Shown here: piece after piece, positions 19,561-64,000 of the stretch
Numbering within the stretch: the stretch's first letter is position 1
How the letters are laid out: the number at the start of each line of letters is the position of its first letter
NCBI GenBank assembly: GCA_944384265.1
Contig: CALWSR010000003.1
Coordinates: 62,001 to 126,000 of the forward strand
Direction: 5' to 3'
Length of the DNA stretch: 64,000 nt
Origin: an uncultured Clostridia bacterium
Lineage (GTDB): Bacteria; Bacillota; Clostridia; Lachnospirales; Anaerotignaceae
Notes under the pieces: generated by a model
Seen by the model: the letters and a program-made list of their open reading frames with translations, nothing else
The model's database searches: none
Told to the model about the DNA's origin: nothing
Made by a program: the position numbers and the translations under genes

Positions 19561-20010
19561 GCTAAAAAACAGCCGGATTTTCGCATTTTTGTTTTGCAGC
19601 AAAATATTTTTGCTCTACTGATTTCTTTTTTTTGTACAAAAGAGATAAATTTTTTCTCTTTCGCTGCTATACTGTAAAAACAGCATAAAAAAGCAGCTGC
19701 CTGCCTGGCGGTTTTTCACATAGGTCCTCAGCCTATGGATAAGCCCACCGGCCTTCTGTTTCCCTCTGGCCTTAAAAAGACATTTGCTTTCGATGCCAAC
19801 CCTTTCCCTGACCGGTATTTTTTTCACTGCTTTATGATATGATTTGTTATTTTTTACTGCTGTATCAACACAGCAGCATTTCCGGCAAGGCCCTTTGCCT
19901 CTCTATCCAAAGCTTCACATAGTACTGCTCTGTTCCTTTCAATAGACTGTCCAAATTCATATGCTTGGCTTGGTATTGCCATCGGCATATGTATGTGATG
20001 CATTCCACAC

Positions 20011-20625
20011 CTGCCCTGACACCATTTCTTTACCCTTCCCCCACACCATTGTATTACCAATTCTTCCATGGCTCTTTTTTTCACCACAAAGCGTCTTTTC
20101 TTTATATGGTATTTGCAGTTTCACATTCTATGCCCAAACCCTATATCTCTCCCCTGCTCCTGCCCTTAGCAGACCCCAGCCCTATGACAGCAAAAAGGCT
20201 TTTTGCATCCCACGCCTGCCCTGACACCATTTCTTTACCCTTCCCCCCACATCATTGTATTGCCAATTCTTCCATAGCTCTTTTTTTCACCACAAAGTGT
20301 CTTTCCTTATATATGGTATTTGTAGTTTCACATTCTATGCCCAAACTCTATATCTCTCCCCTGCTCCTGCCCTTGGCAGACCCCAGCCCTATGACAGCAA
20401 AAAGTCTTTTTGCATCCCACACCTGCCCTGACACCATTTCTTTCCCCTTCTCCCACATCATTGTATTGTCAATTCTTCCATAGCTCTTTTTTTCACCACA
20501 AAGCGTTTTTCCTTTATATGGTATTTGCAGTTTCACATTCTATGCCCAAACCCTATATCTCTCCCCTGCTCCTGTCCTTGGCAGACTCCAGCTCTATGAC
20601 AGCAAAAAGGCTTTTTGCATCCCAC
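20011..20625. repeat. Tandem array, 3 copies of a ~206-bp unit
   Basis: Copies begin at 20011, 20216 and 20424 with the marker CTGCCCTGACACCATTTC and end with TTTTTGCATCCCAC. The copies differ by scattered substitutions and small indels. Open frames through it are a by-product of the repeat and carry no recognisable protein. The array separates the flagellar operon promoter region from the chemoreceptor cluster. Confidence 0.9.
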
Positions 20626-20650
20626 ATTCCATACAGGGCTTTACACACAT

Positions 20651-26979: not shown

Positions 26980-27030
26980 AGCCATCCGCTGGGGCGGGTG
27001 GCCCATAGGCCTCTTTTTTTGCAGCCATTG

Positions 27031-27499
27031 CTCTGCCGCCTGCTTTTTGTGCCTGTGGCCTTCATACAGCTTTTACTGCTCTTCTTTTCATAGCTTGTCA
27101 TATGCTTTGCTGTTTTTTACTGTTGTATCTGCAATACCAAAGTGCTTTGTTTCTATTGCACTGCAATTTTCTGCTTTTTGCCTCTAAAACGCAATACGCC
27201 CATTTTTTTACATATACAATGCTTGTGGATAACAGCAGTAATTCCTCTGCCGGCTGTCTTTTGCGCCTGTGGCCTGCATACAGCTTTTACTGCTCTTCTT
27301 TTCATAGCTTGTCATATGCTTTGCTGTTTTTTACTGTTGTATCTGCAATACCAAAGTGCTTTGTTTCTATTGCACTGCAATTTTCTGCTTTTTGCCTCTA
27401 AAACGCAATACGCCCATTTTTTACATATAGAATGCTTGTGGATAACAGCAGTAATTCCTCTGTCGGCTGTCTTTTGCGCCTGTGGCCTGCATACAGCTT
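27031..27499. repeat. Tandem array, ~2.2 copies of a ~213-bp unit
   Basis: The marker ACAGCTTTTACTGCTCTTC occurs at 27066 and 27280, and ACAGCTT again at 27493, giving periods of 214 and 213. The copies are nearly identical, so the duplication is recent or kept homogeneous. Repeated open frames inside the array are artefacts. No gene is seen from here to the tRNA. Confidence 0.9.
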
Positions 27500-27870: not shown

Positions 27871-27875
27871 AAACA

Positions 27876-40647: not shown

Positions 40648-41306
40648 GCAGCCCCCTTTTATCATACTGCTTTGCCATTTCCGGTGCATTGTGCTTTCCA
40701 TTTTTCATACAGCTCCGTAAAAACCGTATTTTCCCCTTCCGTTGTTTTTTTATTCCATATTTGCCCTGCAATACCCATTTATTTCCATGCCTATGCCCAC
40801 ATGATATTTTGAAATTGCAGCAGCTTACACAAACAATTTTTGAAAATAATAGAAAACCGGCTGTTTTCTGAGCAAAATCCCCTCAAAAAGCAACCATTTG
40901 TTGTACACTGTTATTTTAAGCGGGCTATTTTGCAACAGCCCCCTTTTATCATACTGCTTTGCCATTTCCGGTGCATTCTGCTTTTCATTTTTCATAGCTC
41001 CATGAAAGCTGCATTTTCCCCTTCCGTTGTTTTTTTATTCCATATTTGCCCTGCAATACCCATTTATTTCCATGCCTATGCCCACATGATATTTTGAAAT
41101 TGCAGCAGCTTACACAAAGAATTTTTGAAAATAATAGAAAACCGGCTGTTTTCTGAGCAAAATCCCCTCAAAAAGCAACCGTTTGTTGTACACTGTTATT
41201 TTAAGAGGGCTATTTTGCAACAGCCCCCTTTTATCATACTACTTTGCCATTTCCGCTGCATTGCGCTTTCCATTTTTCATAGCTCCATGAAAACCGCATT
41301 TTCCCA
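40648..41306. repeat. Tandem array, ~2.3 copies of a ~286-bp unit with embedded stem-loop element
   Basis: The marker ATCATACT occurs at 40661, 40948 and 41233 (periods 287 and 285). Each full unit includes one copy of the dispersed stem-loop core (AAAACCGGCTGTTTTCTGAG and TTTTGCAACAGCCCC) at about 40817-40945 and 41101-41230. The short frames repeated in it are artefacts. No gene lies between murI and tex. Confidence 0.9.
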
Positions 41307-56288: not shown

Positions 56289-56334
56289 AAAAAAATACCC
56301 TTCTATGCTTGTGTTGTATAATAGAAGGATATTT
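56289..56334 (-). terminator. Rho-independent terminator of the rdrA-rdrB operon
   Basis: A 14-bp stem with one mismatch (AAATATCCTTCTAT on the minus strand, paired with ATAGAAGGGTATTT) and a 14-base loop, followed by a T run. It lies about 90 bases beyond the rdrB stop. Confidence 0.8.
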
Positions 56335-56424
56335 TTATTTCTTTACAAAAAAATTTTGCAATACCAAATAGAAGTCCATTCCTATTTACAGTATGTTGAT
56401 ACCGCTTTACCGGCTAGGCATAAA

Positions 56425-59124
56425 TTACCCTTTTAATTGTTTTAATACTTCATCTAATTCCTCCAGCATTTCTTCATCTGGGAGATGATTTCTGATAAAA
56501 GAACATTCTATACCATTTTTTCTTAGCTTTTCAATCCAGTTTAAAGCCAATTCTTTATTGCACTTTTTTTCCATCAAACCATAATAGATATAACATAATT
56601 CATTGCTGATATTTGTATTTAATAAAGAAGGGTCGTCTGTATTTACACAAATCATTACATTGCTTTTGGTATCCATAAAATGATTGATGGTATAAGAATG
56701 ATGGTCAAATAAAGAATCCATTTCACCAATTACCACATTGGAAGAAGGATTGACTTCTATCACAACACCAAGCTGTCCAAAATATTGCTCTAATATGGCT
56801 TGTATGTTTTTTATAATTTCTATATCCTGCTGTGTAATTTCTATATGAATGGGTTTCATCATACGTTTTAAATAATATTGGCAGTGCTTGGCATAATAAA
56901 GCTCTTCTGCCCCCCATAAAGCAGTACCATTGTGTATCCTTTTGCAAAAGCTTTCTTTGAACTCTTTTTTATTACAGTCTATATCTACGAAGGATTTATA
57001 AAATTCTTTTTTATATGCTTTTATCTGTGTAGAAACATTTATGCTACCTTCATAAATTGCTTCTGAGAGCTTTTCTATTTTCTCCTCTAAATAAAATAAT
57101 TGTTTGGTCACATCCAATTCGGAATTTCTCAATAAATCAAATGCCCAGATATAATCCTCCAACAGCTCTATGCGGGGTAAAATGACAACGGGATTTCTTT
57201 TCTGCCAAAATTCTGCTGAAATGCCCAATGCTATGCCATGCCCAATTCTATCCCCTGCATGAAATTTGCAGTAATAAACGGCTTCATGCATACGCCGCAG
57301 TCCGGAAAGCAAATGTCTAAATTCCTCTCCTGCGTGAAATGTAAAGCATAAGCTTTGCAAAGAGCATTTTGTACCATTTTTTTGTATAAAAACCGGTTCA
57401 CAGGAGCTATCCCTTGCGTTTTCAAAAACAGGTGCAAACACCTGTACCGGTGTTGCATTTTCTAAGCTGGCTGCATCAATTCCCACAATATATTTGCTTA
57501 AAATAGGATATTTTACTCTGATTTCTTTGATACACTCTAATTGCTGTTGATATTTTTTTTGCAAATTTCCATAATATAAAAAAGAATCATAGCCCTCCTC
57601 CTCTTTTTTGAAATAACTGCAAGCATCATAAAAGCATTTTAAATGGATTGCCGTATCTTCACTTTTTATAAAATGAAAAATAAGCCCCACCCTTGGCAGT
57701 TTTTTATATGGAACATATTTCTGTTCTTTTTTGGTGCAATAGCTTTTTTGTAATATTTTTTGATATGCACTCAAAAAAGCTGCTATATCCTTTAAAATAT
57801 CCTTTTCTTTTTCTTTTATAGAAAGACGAAATTCTATTTTTTCAATATATTTATTTTGAAATTGTTCTCTGATTGCAATTTCCCAATATTCCTTCTCTTC
57901 AATCTTTTTGATAAAATTACCGGCTCTGCTGTTTTTTCCATAATATCTTTGAAAATGCTGCAATCCTGTTATGGTATTTTCTTGTACATAAACATGGAAA
58001 ATATGATGCTTTATTCTAATATATCGAAAAAATATTTCTTGAAAGCATTTATTTTCTTGAAAACATTTATTTTCTTGAAAGCATTTATTTTGTGGTGCAT
58101 TTTGTATTTTTTCTAAAGCATAAAATAAAAATATGGCTTCCTTTGTGGTATTGATATAGCTTCTTTTAAATATGTTGTCAATATAATCATAATCACCATT
58201 TTCATCTGCCAAATAACACGTTTCTATTTTTTCCCACAAAGAAACAAAAAAACTATAAATGTTTTGTTGCGGCTCTTTTTTTGATTTGAAATTTTGTTGT
58301 ATATTGTCCTCTATACTGCATAGGTCTTGGAGCAAATTCTGCTTTATTTTACAAAATTCTTCAGGAGGATACTCCTTTTCATATTTTATCCATATACTTA
58401 ATACAAAGCGTAATATATTTGCCGTTAAAATCAATATAAAATCCTCTTCTTTTAAATATAAATTCAAAAAGCTGTCCTTATTTTTTGCATACAGCCGCTT
58501 CATAAAGCTATCCCAAAATAGCCCAAAGCTTCCATAAGCGCCTGCATGGATATGATTTTCTGCAATTCCCCTTTGCAGCAAGCCGTCCAGCTGCATATCC
58601 CCCATATGAATCAGACCATAAAACCCCTCTAAATAATCAATCAGTTCAATATCATGGTCTTTAGAATAATTTGCATTATCCAATAAATACTGTACTACAA
58701 TCATATCCAAAGGAATGTGGCGGTTTAAGGCATGAAAAAAAATGATTTTATTGTGTCCCGAAAATCCCCCAAGCAATTCCCTGTCCTGGTCATTTTCCCA
58801 GTATTTATATACAAATTTTCCGTCCCTTTGGGATATAAAGGCCCTTGCCAGCTTTGAAAACATATCCAGAGAATATTCCACTGCATTACGGTACTGCTTT
58901 TCCGAAAAGAAGTAATATTTTTTAACCAGCATATCCAATATATCTAAATTTTGAATGTGGTATTTTGATTTTATGGCCTCTTCTATGTATTTTGTAATGT
59001 CTTTGGTATCAAATTCCTTTGCCTCTTTTTGATAATGCTGCTCTATGCCGTCCTGCTCATAAAATCCCAGCCCTGCAAAGGGATAACACATTACTTTTAT
59101 CATGCAGTTTATTGCATTGTTCAA
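56425..59124 (-). CDS. rdrB: RADAR adenosine deaminase-like protein RdrB
   Basis: 899 residues from a TTG directly after the rdrA stop (AGAAGG ribosome site inside rdrA); ATG 59103 or 59091 are alternatives. All adenosine-deaminase metal and catalytic motifs are present, widely spaced: HIH (His191, His193), HAGE (597-600), RIGHG (626-630) and NTDDP (828-832). At more than twice the length of housekeeping adenosine deaminase, with large insertions and an ATPase partner, it matches RdrB. Known RdrB proteins deaminate adenosine in RNA and/or adenine nucleotides during phage infection. Residues 346-363 are three copies of NKCFQE encoded by perfect-length 18-bp repeats. Confidence 0.9.
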   Translation of the reverse strand: MNNAINCMIKVMCYPFAGLGFYEQDGIEQHYQKEAKEFDTKDITKYIEEAIKSKYHIQNLDILDMLVKKYYFFSEKQYRNAVEYSLDMFSKLARAFISQRDGKFVYKYWENDQDRELLGGFSGHNKIIFFHALNRHIPLDMIVVQYLLDNANYSKDHDIELIDYLEGFYGLIHMGDMQLDGLLQRGIAENHIHAGAYGSFGLFWDSFMKRLYAKNKDSFLNLYLKEEDFILILTANILRFVLSIWIKYEKEYPPEEFCKIKQNLLQDLCSIEDNIQQNFKSKKEPQQNIYSFFVSLWEKIETCYLADENGDYDYIDNIFKRSYINTTKEAIFLFYALEKIQNAPQNKCFQENKCFQENKCFQEIFFRYIRIKHHIFHVYVQENTITGLQHFQRYYGKNSRAGNFIKKIEEKEYWEIAIREQFQNKYIEKIEFRLSIKEKEKDILKDIAAFLSAYQKILQKSYCTKKEQKYVPYKKLPRVGLIFHFIKSEDTAIHLKCFYDACSYFKKEEEGYDSFLYYGNLQKKYQQQLECIKEIRVKYPILSKYIVGIDAASLENATPVQVFAPVFENARDSSCEPVFIQKNGTKCSLQSLCFTFHAGEEFRHLLSGLRRMHEAVYYCKFHAGDRIGHGIALGISAEFWQKRNPVVILPRIELLEDYIWAFDLLRNSELDVTKQLFYLEEKIEKLSEAIYEGSINVSTQIKAYKKEFYKSFVDIDCNKKEFKESFCKRIHNGTALWGAEELYYAKHCQYYLKRMMKPIHIEITQQDIEIIKNIQAILEQYFGQLGVVIEVNPSSNVVIGEMDSLFDHHSYTINHFMDTKSNVMICVNTDDPSLLNTNISNELCYIYYGLMEKKCNKELALNWIEKLRKNGIECSFIRNHLPDEEMLEELDEVLKQLKG
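58036..58089 (-). repeat. In-frame 18-bp minisatellite in rdrB
   Basis: Three adjacent 18-base units (58036-58053, 58054-58071, 58072-58089) differ at one position. They encode NKCFQE three times. Unit length is a multiple of three, so copy-number changes keep the frame. Confidence 0.95.
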
Positions 59125-62100
59125 TTATTTTCCTTCTTTCTTTTCTTTTTTATTTGCTTCTTCTTCAAATAGTGATTCAATATCTCTTATGTCAATGTTC
59201 AATTCATTGTCATTTATTTTTTCTGTAAATTTCGTTTCTTCTGTTTTTCTGTATAATTCTCTTGCTTTGGTGATATCTTCATCAAATTTTACTACCGTGT
59301 CTAAATGACTCCATGGATTTCCCATTGTATTATTTTTATATACAGCATAAAAATACAAATGAAGCTTAAAAATAGCTTCGTTTTTCTTTTCTTCTTTTTC
59401 TTCTTCTTTCTCTCCAGTATTTTGCTCCTTATGCCATGTTAATTTATAAATGGCATAATACCATTCTCTTGCCTCTTCCTTTCCATACCAACCCCTTCCA
59501 GAAAATGTCTTATGTAATATTTCGCATTCTTCTCGTATATCCTTATATTCTCTTTTTGGGTCCTCTGGCTTATACTTATCTTCTATCTCTCGTATGTTCA
59601 ATTTACTTTTATCAGCAACTGTTTGATTATAATAACTACTGCCAGAGTAGCATGAAAGAAATTTTTGTTTCTTGTCTTTAAAATTATCATCTGTCATAAT
59701 ATATTTTAAAGATTTAATCTCTTCTTTTAGATATTCATATATGCACTCTTTTAAATTTGATATGGGTTTATCATTGAATATTACGCTATCCCATAATCTA
59801 TTTGCATCCATTTTTTTCATAATATCATATTGCTTTTGATATTTTTGTTTCTGTTTTTCATCAAAGTTTTTATTATTTATAATATTACTTATAAGAGCTT
59901 CATTTTCTGCAATAGATTTTACATTTAAAATTTGTTTTGTTATATTATCTATATGAAAAATTGTTTCCTCATAATATTTTATAAAATAATTATATAATAA
60001 TTTCTTTCTCAATTCTTTATATATTGGGCTATCTTCCAATGTATCTTCTAGGCTTTCTTTCGATTTGCCTTCTAGGCTTTCTTCCGATTTGTCTTCTAGG
60101 CTTTCTTCCGATTTGCCTTCTAGGCTTTCTTCCGATTTGCCTTCTAGGCTTTCTTCCGATTTGCCTTCTTGATTATCTTTCGACTCATTTCCTGCTGTAC
60201 ATGTCTCATCATTTTCTTTTTGAGTATCCTTCGGCTTTATATTATATAGTTTTTCACATTCTTTCTCTTTGAAATTTATGATGTCATGAAATAATGCTTC
60301 TGATGTCAGTGTTTTTTTACCCCCTGATAATACCCGTTGTATGGTATCAAAAGATTTCTCAAAGCCATTATAATTTTCAGCCAAATACTGCATCATTGTA
60401 TTATCATCCTTCTCTTTTTGGCATAAAAAAGATTTTAATGCTTGTTCTATATTGATAAACAGTTGTATTTTGTCCTCAAATGTATTAAAATCAAATGCTT
60501 TATAAAAATTATAGCCTTTCTCTACCAGCTTTTCATAAAAATTTAAAGCAAACAAAAAATCTCCATTTCTGAAAAATTGGTTTATAACGCCAAAAAGTAC
60601 ATTTTCTGTTCTATCTTCCTTTTCTTCAGCCATTTTTATGATATATTCCATCATTTCCTTTTCGATTAAAGCACTGCTTTCGTGTAAAGAGGGGGTGAAA
60701 AGCAATGCTTTTATGGCTTTGATTTTGGCCTTTTTGTAACTATTCGTTGTAACATTTATTTCTTGAAACAATTTTTTTATAAATTCTATGATTAAAAACA
60801 AAACAAACATACTTTTTCTGCTTTTACTATTTTTTTGCAGAAGCTCTGAAATTTCATTCTCACTTTTATCTTCCATTGCTTTTATGTCTTCCATTGCTTC
60901 ATCCATATATATTATAAAATTATCATAAAGAATATCCACACTTTCATTGTCATTATTAAAATGTATAATACTGTCAATGTTGTCACGCTGTCCATTTAAT
61001 ATTGGATTTGCAGCAATCATGGTATCAATCAAATTTCTTTTATCTGTATAATCCATATTTTTGTCATCCTGCCATTTTTGATACATATCATATAATACGG
61101 CATACATATTATTTAACCCTCTGGCCGTTTCATCAAAAAGGTGATATGTCAAAGGCAATGCTTTTTCTTCATTGTCCTCACTGTACATTGTAAAAAAGCG
61201 TTGGTTTTGCAATTCTTTTTCCTCTAATTTTCTCAATAATCCATGTAATGTCATTTCTGTTTTTTCATCTTTTTGTGCAATAAAATAGCCTCCTCTGTTT
61301 TTTAAAGACCAATATTTTATATTATGTCTATAAACAGGAGGCGCTACCTTTTTCAAATATTCATAAGCCAATTCTTTTTTTCGTTCCAATAAAGGCATTT
61401 CGTTTATAAACTTCCCACTCCATACCGTTTCGGAAAGGGCCTGCTCCTGTCTTAAAAAATCTATTGTAATGGCTTCTTCAAATGTGTCCAAATCTCCTGA
61501 AAAAAATGTAACGATATTAGGATGAGAAATATAAGAAAGAAGTGTTTTTATCACATCCATGCACCTGTTTGTGCTTAAATCAATATCATCAATAAATATA
61601 AACACCATAGCATTTTTTTCTTCACAGTTTTCTAATAAAGTATTTATAAACTTATGAAATCTTTTAATAAATTCCTGGTCAGCATTAAAAATCTGACTGG
61701 ATTTTTTGGTATACTCCAATTCGCTGGTAAAATTATCCATCAATATATTTTTGTATTGGGGCTGTATATAACAAAACTGTTTTACAACATCACGATACAC
61801 TCTTTCCAGGTCGCTTTTCTCATTTCTATTGCAAGGAAGAGCATTCTTGTTTTCACTTTCATATTTTGCGACAACATCAGAAAACATACCAATGATACTG
61901 GACATCAAGCTGTTGTTTTGAGACATATTTTCAGGTATGATAATGGGAAGTAAAACATCCTTTTTGTTTGTATCCTTGCTTTCTTTTTTTAATTCTTCAC
62001 GTATGGTACGCAATATAGATGTTTTTCCTGTTCCTCTTTTTCCAAGGATAGCAATATTGTTTATTTTTTGAGGAATGGCATCAACATCTATTTCCTCATT

Positions 62101-62241
62101 CCCACTTTCTTTTGATACCTTCTGCGCATTTTCACGAAATAGTTTTATTTGTTCCAAAATCGTTTCATATGTTGCCAATGTTTTTTGAATTTCAGGCCTG
62201 GTCAGCGTTCTTGCCCCTATGATTATTTTTTGGTTTTCCAT
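59125..62241 (-). CDS. rdrA: RADAR P-loop ATPase RdrA
   Basis: 1038 residues. Walker A GKRGTGKTS at 67-75, Walker B VFIFIDDID at 213-221, and a sensor-like IVTFFSGDLD at 243-252 form an AAA+/STAND-type ATPase core in the first 300 residues. The remainder is a long helical, Lys/Glu-rich region without recognised enzyme motifs. Residues about 690-735 are a repeated EGKSEESL linker. It is the first gene, abutting the deaminase gene with no intergenic base, as in RADAR loci, where RdrA rings work with RdrB. Its codon and base content are A/T-richer than the window's housekeeping genes, suggesting transfer. Confidence 0.88.
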   Translation of the reverse strand: MENQKIIIGARTLTRPEIQKTLATYETILEQIKLFRENAQKVSKESGNEEIDVDAIPQKINNIAILGKRGTGKTSILRTIREELKKESKDTNKKDVLLPIIIPENMSQNNSLMSSIIGMFSDVVAKYESENKNALPCNRNEKSDLERVYRDVVKQFCYIQPQYKNILMDNFTSELEYTKKSSQIFNADQEFIKRFHKFINTLLENCEEKNAMVFIFIDDIDLSTNRCMDVIKTLLSYISHPNIVTFFSGDLDTFEEAITIDFLRQEQALSETVWSGKFINEMPLLERKKELAYEYLKKVAPPVYRHNIKYWSLKNRGGYFIAQKDEKTEMTLHGLLRKLEEKELQNQRFFTMYSEDNEEKALPLTYHLFDETARGLNNMYAVLYDMYQKWQDDKNMDYTDKRNLIDTMIAANPILNGQRDNIDSIIHFNNDNESVDILYDNFIIYMDEAMEDIKAMEDKSENEISELLQKNSKSRKSMFVLFLIIEFIKKLFQEINVTTNSYKKAKIKAIKALLFTPSLHESSALIEKEMMEYIIKMAEEKEDRTENVLFGVINQFFRNGDFLFALNFYEKLVEKGYNFYKAFDFNTFEDKIQLFINIEQALKSFLCQKEKDDNTMMQYLAENYNGFEKSFDTIQRVLSGGKKTLTSEALFHDIINFKEKECEKLYNIKPKDTQKENDETCTAGNESKDNQEGKSEESLEGKSEESLEGKSEESLEDKSEESLEGKSKESLEDTLEDSPIYKELRKKLLYNYFIKYYEETIFHIDNITKQILNVKSIAENEALISNIINNKNFDEKQKQKYQKQYDIMKKMDANRLWDSVIFNDKPISNLKECIYEYLKEEIKSLKYIMTDDNFKDKKQKFLSCYSGSSYYNQTVADKSKLNIREIEDKYKPEDPKREYKDIREECEILHKTFSGRGWYGKEEAREWYYAIYKLTWHKEQNTGEKEEEKEEKKNEAIFKLHLYFYAVYKNNTMGNPWSHLDTVVKFDEDITKARELYRKTEETKFTEKINDNELNIDIRDIESLFEEEANKKEKKEGK
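60045..60164 (-). repeat. In-frame 24-bp minisatellite in rdrA
   Basis: Five consecutive 24-base units fill 60045-60164, with a degenerate sixth to about 60185. Three are identical and two carry single substitutions. They encode EGKSEESL-type units within an acidic/basic linker. Variation in copy number would lengthen or shorten the linker by 8 residues. Confidence 0.95.
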
Positions 62242-62288
62242 AAAAAAACATCACTTCCTTTTGTAACATTATTTTACATTTTTCAACA

Positions 62289-62317
62289 ATTATATCATCA
62301 TTTATCAATAAATACAA
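62289..62317 (-). promoter_or_regulatory. Sigma-A promoter of the rdrA-rdrB operon
   Basis: On the minus strand TTGTAT (62312-62317) and TATAAT (62289-62294) are separated by 17 bases. The ATG of rdrA follows 48 bases after the -10, with AAAAGGAAGTGA as ribosome site at a longer than usual spacing. Confidence 0.72.
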
Positions 62318-63070
62318 TTTGTATCCTAATAAGAAAGTGATGGTATTGCCAAAAAACCCATGGCAGAGAAAAATATATTTTCTTTTCATAGAAACAAACA
62401 AACGCTCTGTATCCTCTATTTATTTCAAATATGAGAGGCAAACGGCATAATATTTCTAACCATTCATATGTATAGTAGATTTTGGCCATACCTCTTTCAT
62501 CTGTATTTTTTAGCCAATGCAAAATTATAAAATGCCACTTATTTTTGTGATAAAAAGCCCTCACACTATCATACTATTTTTTTCTTCCCCATTCCTATAA
62601 AAAGGAAGAATTTGCATGATTTTCTGCTGTTTCTTTTTGCATTGCTGCAATGTTCTTTAAGGAGGCTTTATATTTTCAATATGATTTTTAACTACTTCCA
62701 TGTCTTGACATATTCCATAAACAATTTCTCATAATATTTTAAAAAATTCACATTTTCCTATTTTATCATTTCTTCTCTGAGGGGTAAAAAATCACCTTTT
62801 ATAGTACTGATTAGAAACGCTGTAAATACAAGACCTTTTATCAAAAAAATAATAATTGTTTCTGTTCCATTATGCACAAAAAAACCGTCCAGACCCTATT
62901 GGACGTTTTTTTGTGAGATAAACCAAAAAATAATGACAGAAATTTAAGCCGGAAAATTGTACAGCTTTCATAAAAAAGAGATTCTTAAATGGCATATGAA
63001 AAAACAAAACACAAGGCCCAATGTGTAAAAAACTGTGGAAACTTCTGAGAAAGGAACAGATAAAAAAGGC
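62318..63070. other. Gene-poor region upstream of the defence locus
   Basis: About 750 bases, AT-rich. No third RADAR gene (small membrane protein) could be supported; the short frames have no ribosome site or helix pattern. A hairpin near 62880-62912 (AAAAAAACCGTCC with GGACGTTTTTTT) resembles a terminator. Confidence 0.45.
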
Positions 63071-64000
63071 GGTTTGTGAGGGCTTGCAGCAGCCCCCATC
63101 TGTTTGTGCCATAAGCCTCGGGAACAGCCTCACAGCCGTCGCTGATTTTACCCATAAAAATTGGGGCTGCCGCAATGAAATTACAGTAGCAGCTTACACA
63201 AAGAAAGCTTGTAAATCATATAAAACCGGCTGTTTTCTGAGTAGAATTTACTCCAAAAGCAACCGGTTTTGTACACCATTATTTCAGAGGGCTATTTTAC
63301 AACAGCCCCAAAATATCTGTTATTTTTCAAATGGGAACAGGCAGATACCATGTTTGTAAATGCTTCCAAAGGGTTCATTCCCTACTGCAAACCCCCTCAA
63401 TCAGACAGCAAATCAGCCAAGCCCTGCCATCAGAAACAGCATAAGAAGGCGGTTTGTGAGGGCTTACAGCAGCCCCCTTCTGTTTGTGCCATAAGCCTCG
63501 GGGACAGTCTCACAGCCGTCGCTGATTTTACTCATAAAAATTGGGGCTGCCGCAATGAAATTACAGCAGCAGCTTACACAAAGAAAGCTTGTAAATCATA
63601 TAAAACCGGCTGTTTTCTTAAGTGGAATTTACTCAAAAAGCAACCGGTTTTGTACACCATTATTTCAGAGGGCTATTTTACAACAGCCCCAAAATATCTG
63701 TTATTTTTCAAATGGGAACAGGCAGATACCATGTTTGTAAATGCTTCCAAAGGGTTCATTCCCTACTGCAAACCCCCTCAATCAGACAGCAAATCAGCCA
63801 AGCCCTGCCATCAGAAACAGCATAAGAAGGCGGTTTGTGAGGGCTTACAGCAGCCCCCTTCTGTTTGTGCCATAAGCCTCGGGGACAGTCTCACAGCCGT
63901 CGCTGATTTTACTCATAAAAATTGGGGCTGCCGCAATGAAATTACAGCAGCAGCTTACACAAAGAAAGCTTGTAAATCATATAAAACCGGCTGTTTTCTT
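63071..64000. repeat. Tandem array of a ~380-bp unit with embedded stem-loop element (runs off the window)
   Basis: The marker GGTTTGTGAGGGCTT occurs at 63071, 63451 and 63832 (periods 380 and 381); the third copy is cut. Each unit carries the dispersed stem-loop core, e.g. 63161-63311 with outer arms TTGGGGCTG/CAGCCCCAA and inner arms AAAACCGGCTG/CAACCGGTTTT. Copies are almost identical. Repeated short open frames in the array are artefacts. Confidence 0.92.

What the first reader, a model, noticed from the sequence alone, without database searches (positions are those of the whole stretch)
56289..62317. Complete two-gene RADAR-type anti-phage locus (RdrA ATPase + RdrB deaminase) in a Clostridia genome
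Seen: a 1038-residue P-loop ATPase (Walker A 67-75, Walker B 213-221) abutting an 899-residue protein that keeps HxH, HAGE, RIGHG and NTDDP, all the adenosine-deaminase signatures. The pair has its own promoter and terminator. Known: RADAR pairs an ATPase RdrA with a giant deaminase RdrB that converts adenosine to inosine during infection and limits phage. Inferred: this is an intact, mobile defence module; the larger RdrA and the repeat insertions make it a divergent branch worth characterising.
Basis: partly seen in the sequence, partly recalled or inferred. Interest (0 to 1): 0.92.

Follow-up and report, generated by a model that had tools for sequence, protein, structure and literature searches.

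The report
Bacillota-type RADAR anti-phage gene pair
This is an intact-looking two-gene RADAR anti-phage system (an ATPase ring plus an adenosine-nucleotide deaminase) in a gut-type Clostridia bacterium; it belongs to a known but rare kind of bacterial immunity, in a well-defined Bacillota branch whose members score far below NCBI's curated RADAR cut-offs.

Summary
Two adjoining minus-strand genes, rdrA (59125-62241, 1038 aa) and rdrB (56425-59124, 899 aa), encode RADAR. By sequence, RdrB matches the RADAR deaminase (E 7e-61) and RdrA matches RdrA over its ATPase part only (E 5e-16). By predicted fold, RdrB's best PDB match is E. coli RdrB (Z 33.7 over 679 residues; next, ordinary deaminases, Z 24.5 over about 310). 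RdrA's best seven entries are all RdrA (Z 19-23; next BrxC, Z 12). All four zinc histidines, the catalytic glutamate, Walker A and Walker B residues are invariant in 47 RdrB and 44 RdrA homologues. The pair is linked in every Bacillota locus long enough to judge except one with a broken rdrA, and the two proteins diverge in step (rho 0.91). Nucleotide similarity to its nearest relative ends at the cassette's edges, and its GC is about 10 points below its surroundings, so it was probably acquired horizontally; no integrase or att site lies beside it. The likely mechanism, taken from characterised RADAR, is phage-triggered RdrA activating RdrB to turn (d)ATP into (d)ITP. Divergence this large is already documented within RADAR, so this is a new member of a known kind.

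The parts
59125..62241 (-). rdrA, 1038-aa AAA+ ATPase (Walker A 67-75, Walker B 213-221, sensor 1 D250, sensor 2 R374; helical C-terminal lobe from about residue 420)
   Evidence: NCBIfam RdrA E 5e-16, PADLOC RdrA 2.2e-15; profile of homologues matches E. coli RdrA chains at 5e-42 and S. suis RdrA at 2.6e-10; model matches RdrA structures Z 19-23
56425..59124 (-). rdrB, 899-aa adenosine-deaminase-fold protein (H191, H193, H597, E600, H629, D830), TTG start abutting the rdrA stop
   Evidence: NCBIfam RdrB E 7.4e-61, PADLOC RdrB 2.1e-37; model matches E. coli RdrB Z 33.7 over 679 residues; key residues 47/47
62289..62317 (-). putative promoter TTGTAT-N17-TATAAT upstream of rdrA
   Evidence: read from sequence; same layout in the ASF356 homologue; not listed by the stricter scan
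56291..56335 (-). intrinsic-terminator-like hairpin and T run after rdrB (14-nt loop, too large for the scan)
   Evidence: -15.3 kcal/mol, z -4.0
60027..60169 (-). six in-frame 24-bp repeats encoding E-(G/D)-K-S-E-E-S-L units in a predicted disordered tract (670-733) of RdrA
   Evidence: pLDDT under 50; absent from ASF356 RdrA
58035..58091 (-). in-frame 18-bp repeats encoding NKCFQE x3 in a loop of RdrB
   Evidence: adjacent low-confidence loop at 347-350; absent from relatives

Best explanation
The locus is a complete RADAR system. Shown here: the two genes, their families, intact active-site residues, the RdrB- and RdrA-type predicted folds, conserved linkage, co-divergence, purifying selection, and atypical GC with cassette-bounded homology. 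Inferred from characterised RADAR: RdrA assembles into an ATPase ring whose variable helical C-terminal lobe senses an unknown phage cue; its 'crown' insertion docks the ring on a multimeric RdrB shell; activated RdrB deaminates ATP and dATP to ITP and dITP, spoiling the nucleotide pool and limiting phage replication.
For: Family matches for both proteins. RdrB fold: E. coli RdrB first at Z 33.7, rmsd 3.5, 679 residues, ahead of single-domain deaminases at Z 24.5 over 308. RdrA fold: the first 20 Foldseek chains and the first 7 VIA entries are all RdrA. Zn ligands, catalytic Glu, D830, Walker A and Walker B residues invariant; sensor residues 42/44, matching residues named for E. coli RADAR (PMC9994260). 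The model's secondary structure shows the helical insertion between strands 2 and 3 (112-204) and the helices after sensor 1 (251-299) described for RdrA. rdrA lies directly upstream of rdrB in every Bacillota locus with enough contig to judge except one with a broken rdrA; distances correlate at rho 0.91. dN/dS against ASF356 is about 0.14 for rdrB and 0.08-0.24 for the RdrA ATPase, rising to 0.23-0.56 in the C-terminal part, as expected of a maintained machine with a fast-changing sensor. The ASF356 copy sits beside a type I restriction-modification system.
Against: No activity was or could be tested. The RdrA C-terminal half (beyond about residue 606) did not align to solved RdrA, so its similarity there is undemonstrated. 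Scores are far below NCBIfam cut-offs (206.7 vs 800; 58.3 vs 600). No other defence gene was recognised beside the window copy, although I did not scan its neighbours systematically.
Confidence: 0.93

Rival explanations
1. A RADAR-derived pair that no longer acts by (d)ATP deamination: same folds, but a changed substrate (for example another nucleotide, or RNA) or a non-defence role.
For: Divergence is high outside the active sites (14-16% structural identity); a deaminase fold alone does not fix the substrate; substrate specificity was not testable.
Against: All catalytic and metal residues are invariant across 47 homologues; patchy, horizontally mixed distribution and a fast-evolving C-terminal lobe are typical of defence; S. 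suis and E. coli RADAR, similarly divergent from each other, both defend (PMC9994260).
Confidence: 0.05
2. A different adenosine-deaminase effector, such as the CRISPR-associated CARF-deaminase Cad1, paired by chance with an ATPase.
For: PADLOC CARF_ADA profile hits RdrB weakly (4.6e-8); Cad1 structures are among the fold matches (Z about 20-23).
Against: That hit's best stretch covers only the deaminase part (781-895, profile 489-598); the model aligns nearly end to end with E. coli RdrB (11-879), leaving no room for a CARF domain; the neighbour is an RdrA by fold.
Confidence: 0.01
3. A decaying, non-expressed RADAR remnant in this genome.
For: In the same order, 5 of 14 RdrB matches carry in-frame stops, so decay may be common.
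Against: Both frames here are open and full length, promoter and terminator signals are present, and dN/dS is low.
Confidence: 0.03

Closest known systems
RADAR of E. coli P0304799.3 and C. rodentium (RdrA/RdrB; PDB 8fnt, 8fnv, 8fnw, 8hr7-8hrb)
   Same: Two adjoining genes in the order rdrA-rdrB; the same catalytic residues; RdrB fold over nearly its full length; RdrA ATPase with crown and post-sensor-1 insertions.
   Different: About 15% identity in the structural alignment for RdrB and 11-13% for RdrA; RdrB about 100 residues longer, RdrA about 90 longer with a disordered repeat tract; C-terminal half of RdrA does not align well.
RADAR of Streptococcus suis SS993 (RdrA 8fnu)
   Same: Another Bacillota RADAR, which defends E. 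coli when transplanted (PMC9994260); RdrA fold matches (Z 19.6, 402 residues).
   Different: The RdrA clade profile A2 finds E. coli-type RdrA but not S. suis RdrA at E 0.1; S. suis RdrB was not available to place in the tree.
Clostridium sp. MD294 (ASF356) RdrAB pair (locus L008/L013)
   Same: Closest relative: RdrB 79%, RdrA 59% identity; same promoter layout and TTG start.
   Different: Different genomic place (beside HsdM/HsdS/HsdR); lacks both in-frame repeat tracts.

Membership tests
RADAR | rdrA and rdrB encoded in tandem | tested here: met
   conserved order in homologous loci
RADAR | RdrB with four zinc histidines and catalytic Glu (E. coli H152, H154, H498, H530, E501) | tested here: met
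   H191, H193, H597, H629, E600; invariant in 47/47; H597, E600 and H629 aligned to E. coli RdrB
RADAR | RdrB overall fold, beyond a plain deaminase barrel | tested here: met
   Z 33.7 over 679 residues to 8fnv, versus 24.5 over 308 for the best plain deaminase
RADAR | RdrA Walker A, Walker B, sensor 1, sensor 2 | tested here: met
   G72/K73, D218/D219, D250, R374
RADAR | RdrA AAA+ with helical crown insertion and post-sensor-1 insertion | tested here: met
   helices 112-204 between strands 96-101 and 213-217; helices 251-299 after strand 243-249; RdrA entries stand apart at Z 19-23, next match Z 12
RADAR | RdrA C-terminal helical lobe like solved RdrA | tested here: inconclusive
   all-helical in the model, but alignments end by about residue 606
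RADAR | Reaches curated NCBIfam equivalog cut-offs | tested here: not met
   206.7 vs 800 bits (RdrB), 58.3 vs 600 (RdrA). These are annotation thresholds, not defining biology; the feature does not define the family
RADAR | Heptameric RdrA docked on dodecameric RdrB | not testable with these tools
   no complex prediction available
RADAR | (d)ATP to (d)ITP conversion and phage protection | not testable with these tools
   needs bench work
Cad1 (CARF-adenosine deaminase) | N-terminal CARF domain | tested here: not met
   best stretch of the CARF_ADA hit lies in the deaminase part; N-terminal region aligns with RdrB

The most novel reading that the evidence does not exclude
The Bacillota/Fusobacteriota branch is a functional subtype of RADAR whose distinct, rapidly changing RdrA C-terminal lobe recognises a phage cue, and perhaps docks RdrB, differently from the enterobacterial and streptococcal systems.
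Probability: 0.2. Interest if true: 0.5.

Novelty: new member of a known kind. Interest (0 to 1): 0.3.

Why it matters
RADAR has been reported in under 1% of genomes. Here an RdrB profile finds relatives in 14 of 392 genomes of one order, and the window pair scores far below NCBI's cut-offs; the Cetobacterium pair is annotated 'hypothetical protein'. This suggests RADAR is under-counted in Bacillota. The aligned set (47 RdrB, 44 RdrA) also localises the variable region of RdrA, which makes the open question of what RADAR senses more testable.

Tried and rejected
Conserved third gene (membrane or regulatory partner): none found; the most shared neighbour cluster occurs in only 10 loci, at varying distance and orientation. 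Empty-site comparison: the flanking PNPOx-like gene was found in two congeners but only on short contigs, and the other flank is a chemoreceptor-like protein with many paralogues, so no empty site could be defined. tRNA attachment site: the only tRNA in the window is at 27875. Phage records: no RdrB homologue; three distant ones in viral contigs. A TPR-like match in RdrA was repetitive and weak and is not relied on.

Full report
Observation. Two abutting open frames lie on the minus strand: rdrA at 59125-62241 (1038 aa) and rdrB at 56425-59124 (899 aa). The rdrB TTG start directly follows the rdrA stop, has a good ribosome-binding site, and is used at the same place in the closest relative. 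A TTGTAT-N17-TATAAT box precedes rdrA and has the same layout in the relative. A hairpin with a T run follows rdrB.

Identity by sequence. RdrB matches NCBIfam RdrB at 7.4e-61 and PADLOC RdrB at 2e-37; RdrA matches at 5e-16 and 2e-15, over its ATPase part only. A profile of 44 homologous RdrAs matches the RdrA chains 8hr7/8fnt at 5e-42/4.5e-41 and S. suis RdrA at 2.6e-10. Curated NCBI cut-offs are not reached (206.7 of 800 and 58.3 of 600 bits). The published spread of RADAR, however, is already this wide: 22-28% identity in the conserved parts, and under 20% between E. coli and S. suis RdrA (PMC9994260).

Identity by structure. The RdrB model (pLDDT 86.7, pTM 0.90) matches E. coli RdrB first, over 679 residues at Z 33.7, rmsd 3.5; plain deaminases follow at Z 24.5 over about 310 residues. 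The RdrA model (pLDDT 79.6) matches only RdrA structures in the first 20 Foldseek ranks; by VIA-align, RdrA entries score Z 19-23, then BrxC of BREX at Z 12. The two RdrA-specific insertions are visible in the model's secondary structure. The RdrA half beyond about residue 606 does not align to solved RdrA, so that part stays uncertain.

Active sites. In 47 RdrB sequences H191, H193, H597, E600, H629 and D830 never vary. In 44 RdrA sequences G72, K73, D218 and D219 never vary, and D250 and R374 are kept in 42. These correspond to the residues named for E. coli RADAR.

Relatives. One scan of GTDB genomes gave 51 loci. The Bacillota ones plus a Cetobacterium plasmid copy form one group in a quick tree (SH-aLRT 98), in which the window pairs with Clostridium sp. 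ASF356. rdrA lies directly upstream of rdrB in every such locus except two cut by contig ends and one with a broken rdrA. RdrA and RdrB distances correlate at rho 0.91 in 34 Bacillota-branch pairs (highest of 999 permutations 0.29). Part of that correlation simply reflects shared descent. Within the order, 14 of 392 genomes match, 5 of them with in-frame stops.

Acquisition. Coding GC is 29.6% (rdrA) and 32.1% (rdrB) against about 41% on average for long frames in the window. Nucleotide similarity to ASF356 lies between 56421 and 62298, that is from the rdrB stop to the promoter, with only the variable rdrA regions too diverged to align; no flanking DNA aligns. In ASF356 the pair sits beside a type I restriction-modification system; in another family member it is next to a tyrosine integrase. 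A third congener, Coprocola, carries a different RADAR lineage grouped with Gemmiger, and the Fusobacteriota plasmid copy nests among Bacillota. This supports transfer as a two-gene cassette. No integrase, transposase or tRNA was found beside the window copy.

Selection. Against ASF356, rdrB has dN/dS near 0.14, the RdrA ATPase 0.08-0.24, and the RdrA C-terminal part 0.23-0.56. A maintained enzyme with a rapidly diversifying lobe fits the published suggestion that this lobe senses phage; that remains an inference. The in-frame repeats in both genes lie in or beside low-confidence segments, are absent from ASF356, and cannot switch the reading frame when whole units are gained or lost.

Mechanism. 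By homology with characterised RADAR (PMC9994260), phage infection would activate RdrA, which docks on RdrB and enhances conversion of ATP and dATP to ITP and dITP. Earlier work proposed RNA editing; the structural and biochemical work cited favours free nucleotides.

Verdict. A genuine, apparently intact RADAR locus in a Bacillota branch that standard annotation cut-offs appear to miss: a new member of a known kind, of modest interest.

Noticed in passing
window 63052-64000, continuing to G000:C3:126288: A 381-bp tandem array beside rdrA; parts of the unit (about the first 77 and last 70 bases) recur at dozens of other sites in the genome, so it contains a dispersed repeat element.
   Followed up: partly
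window 19999-20626, 27027-27499, 40649-41305: Three more long-period tandem arrays (205, 214 and 285 bp), possibly of the same kind as the 381-bp array.
   Followed up: no
L027 and L045 (Oceanirhabdus sp. W0125-5, NZ_CP115913.1): One chromosome carries three RADAR loci: two complete pairs in tandem and a third whose rdrA appears broken.
   Followed up: partly
L043 and L044 (Peptostreptococcaceae MAG McD6.36): Two RADAR pairs with unusually large proteins: RdrA 1342 and 1357 aa, RdrB 1049 and 1092 aa.
   Followed up: no
L006:6900-12628 (Cetobacterium somerae 705-kb plasmid): A Fusobacteriota plasmid carries a RADAR pair of this branch annotated only as hypothetical proteins.
   Followed up: partly
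same-order genomes G269, G330, G299, G249, G231: RdrB matches with in-frame stop codons, suggesting frequent decay of RADAR or assembly errors.
   Followed up: no
alignment A4, one member: One RdrA homologue also matches cell-wall-binding EntB/EntC models (2.6e-14), perhaps through a repetitive linker.
   Followed up: no
L082 (IMG/VR contig IMGVR_UViG_643692026_000006): A distant RdrB relative on a 42.6-kb contig classed as viral.
   Followed up: no
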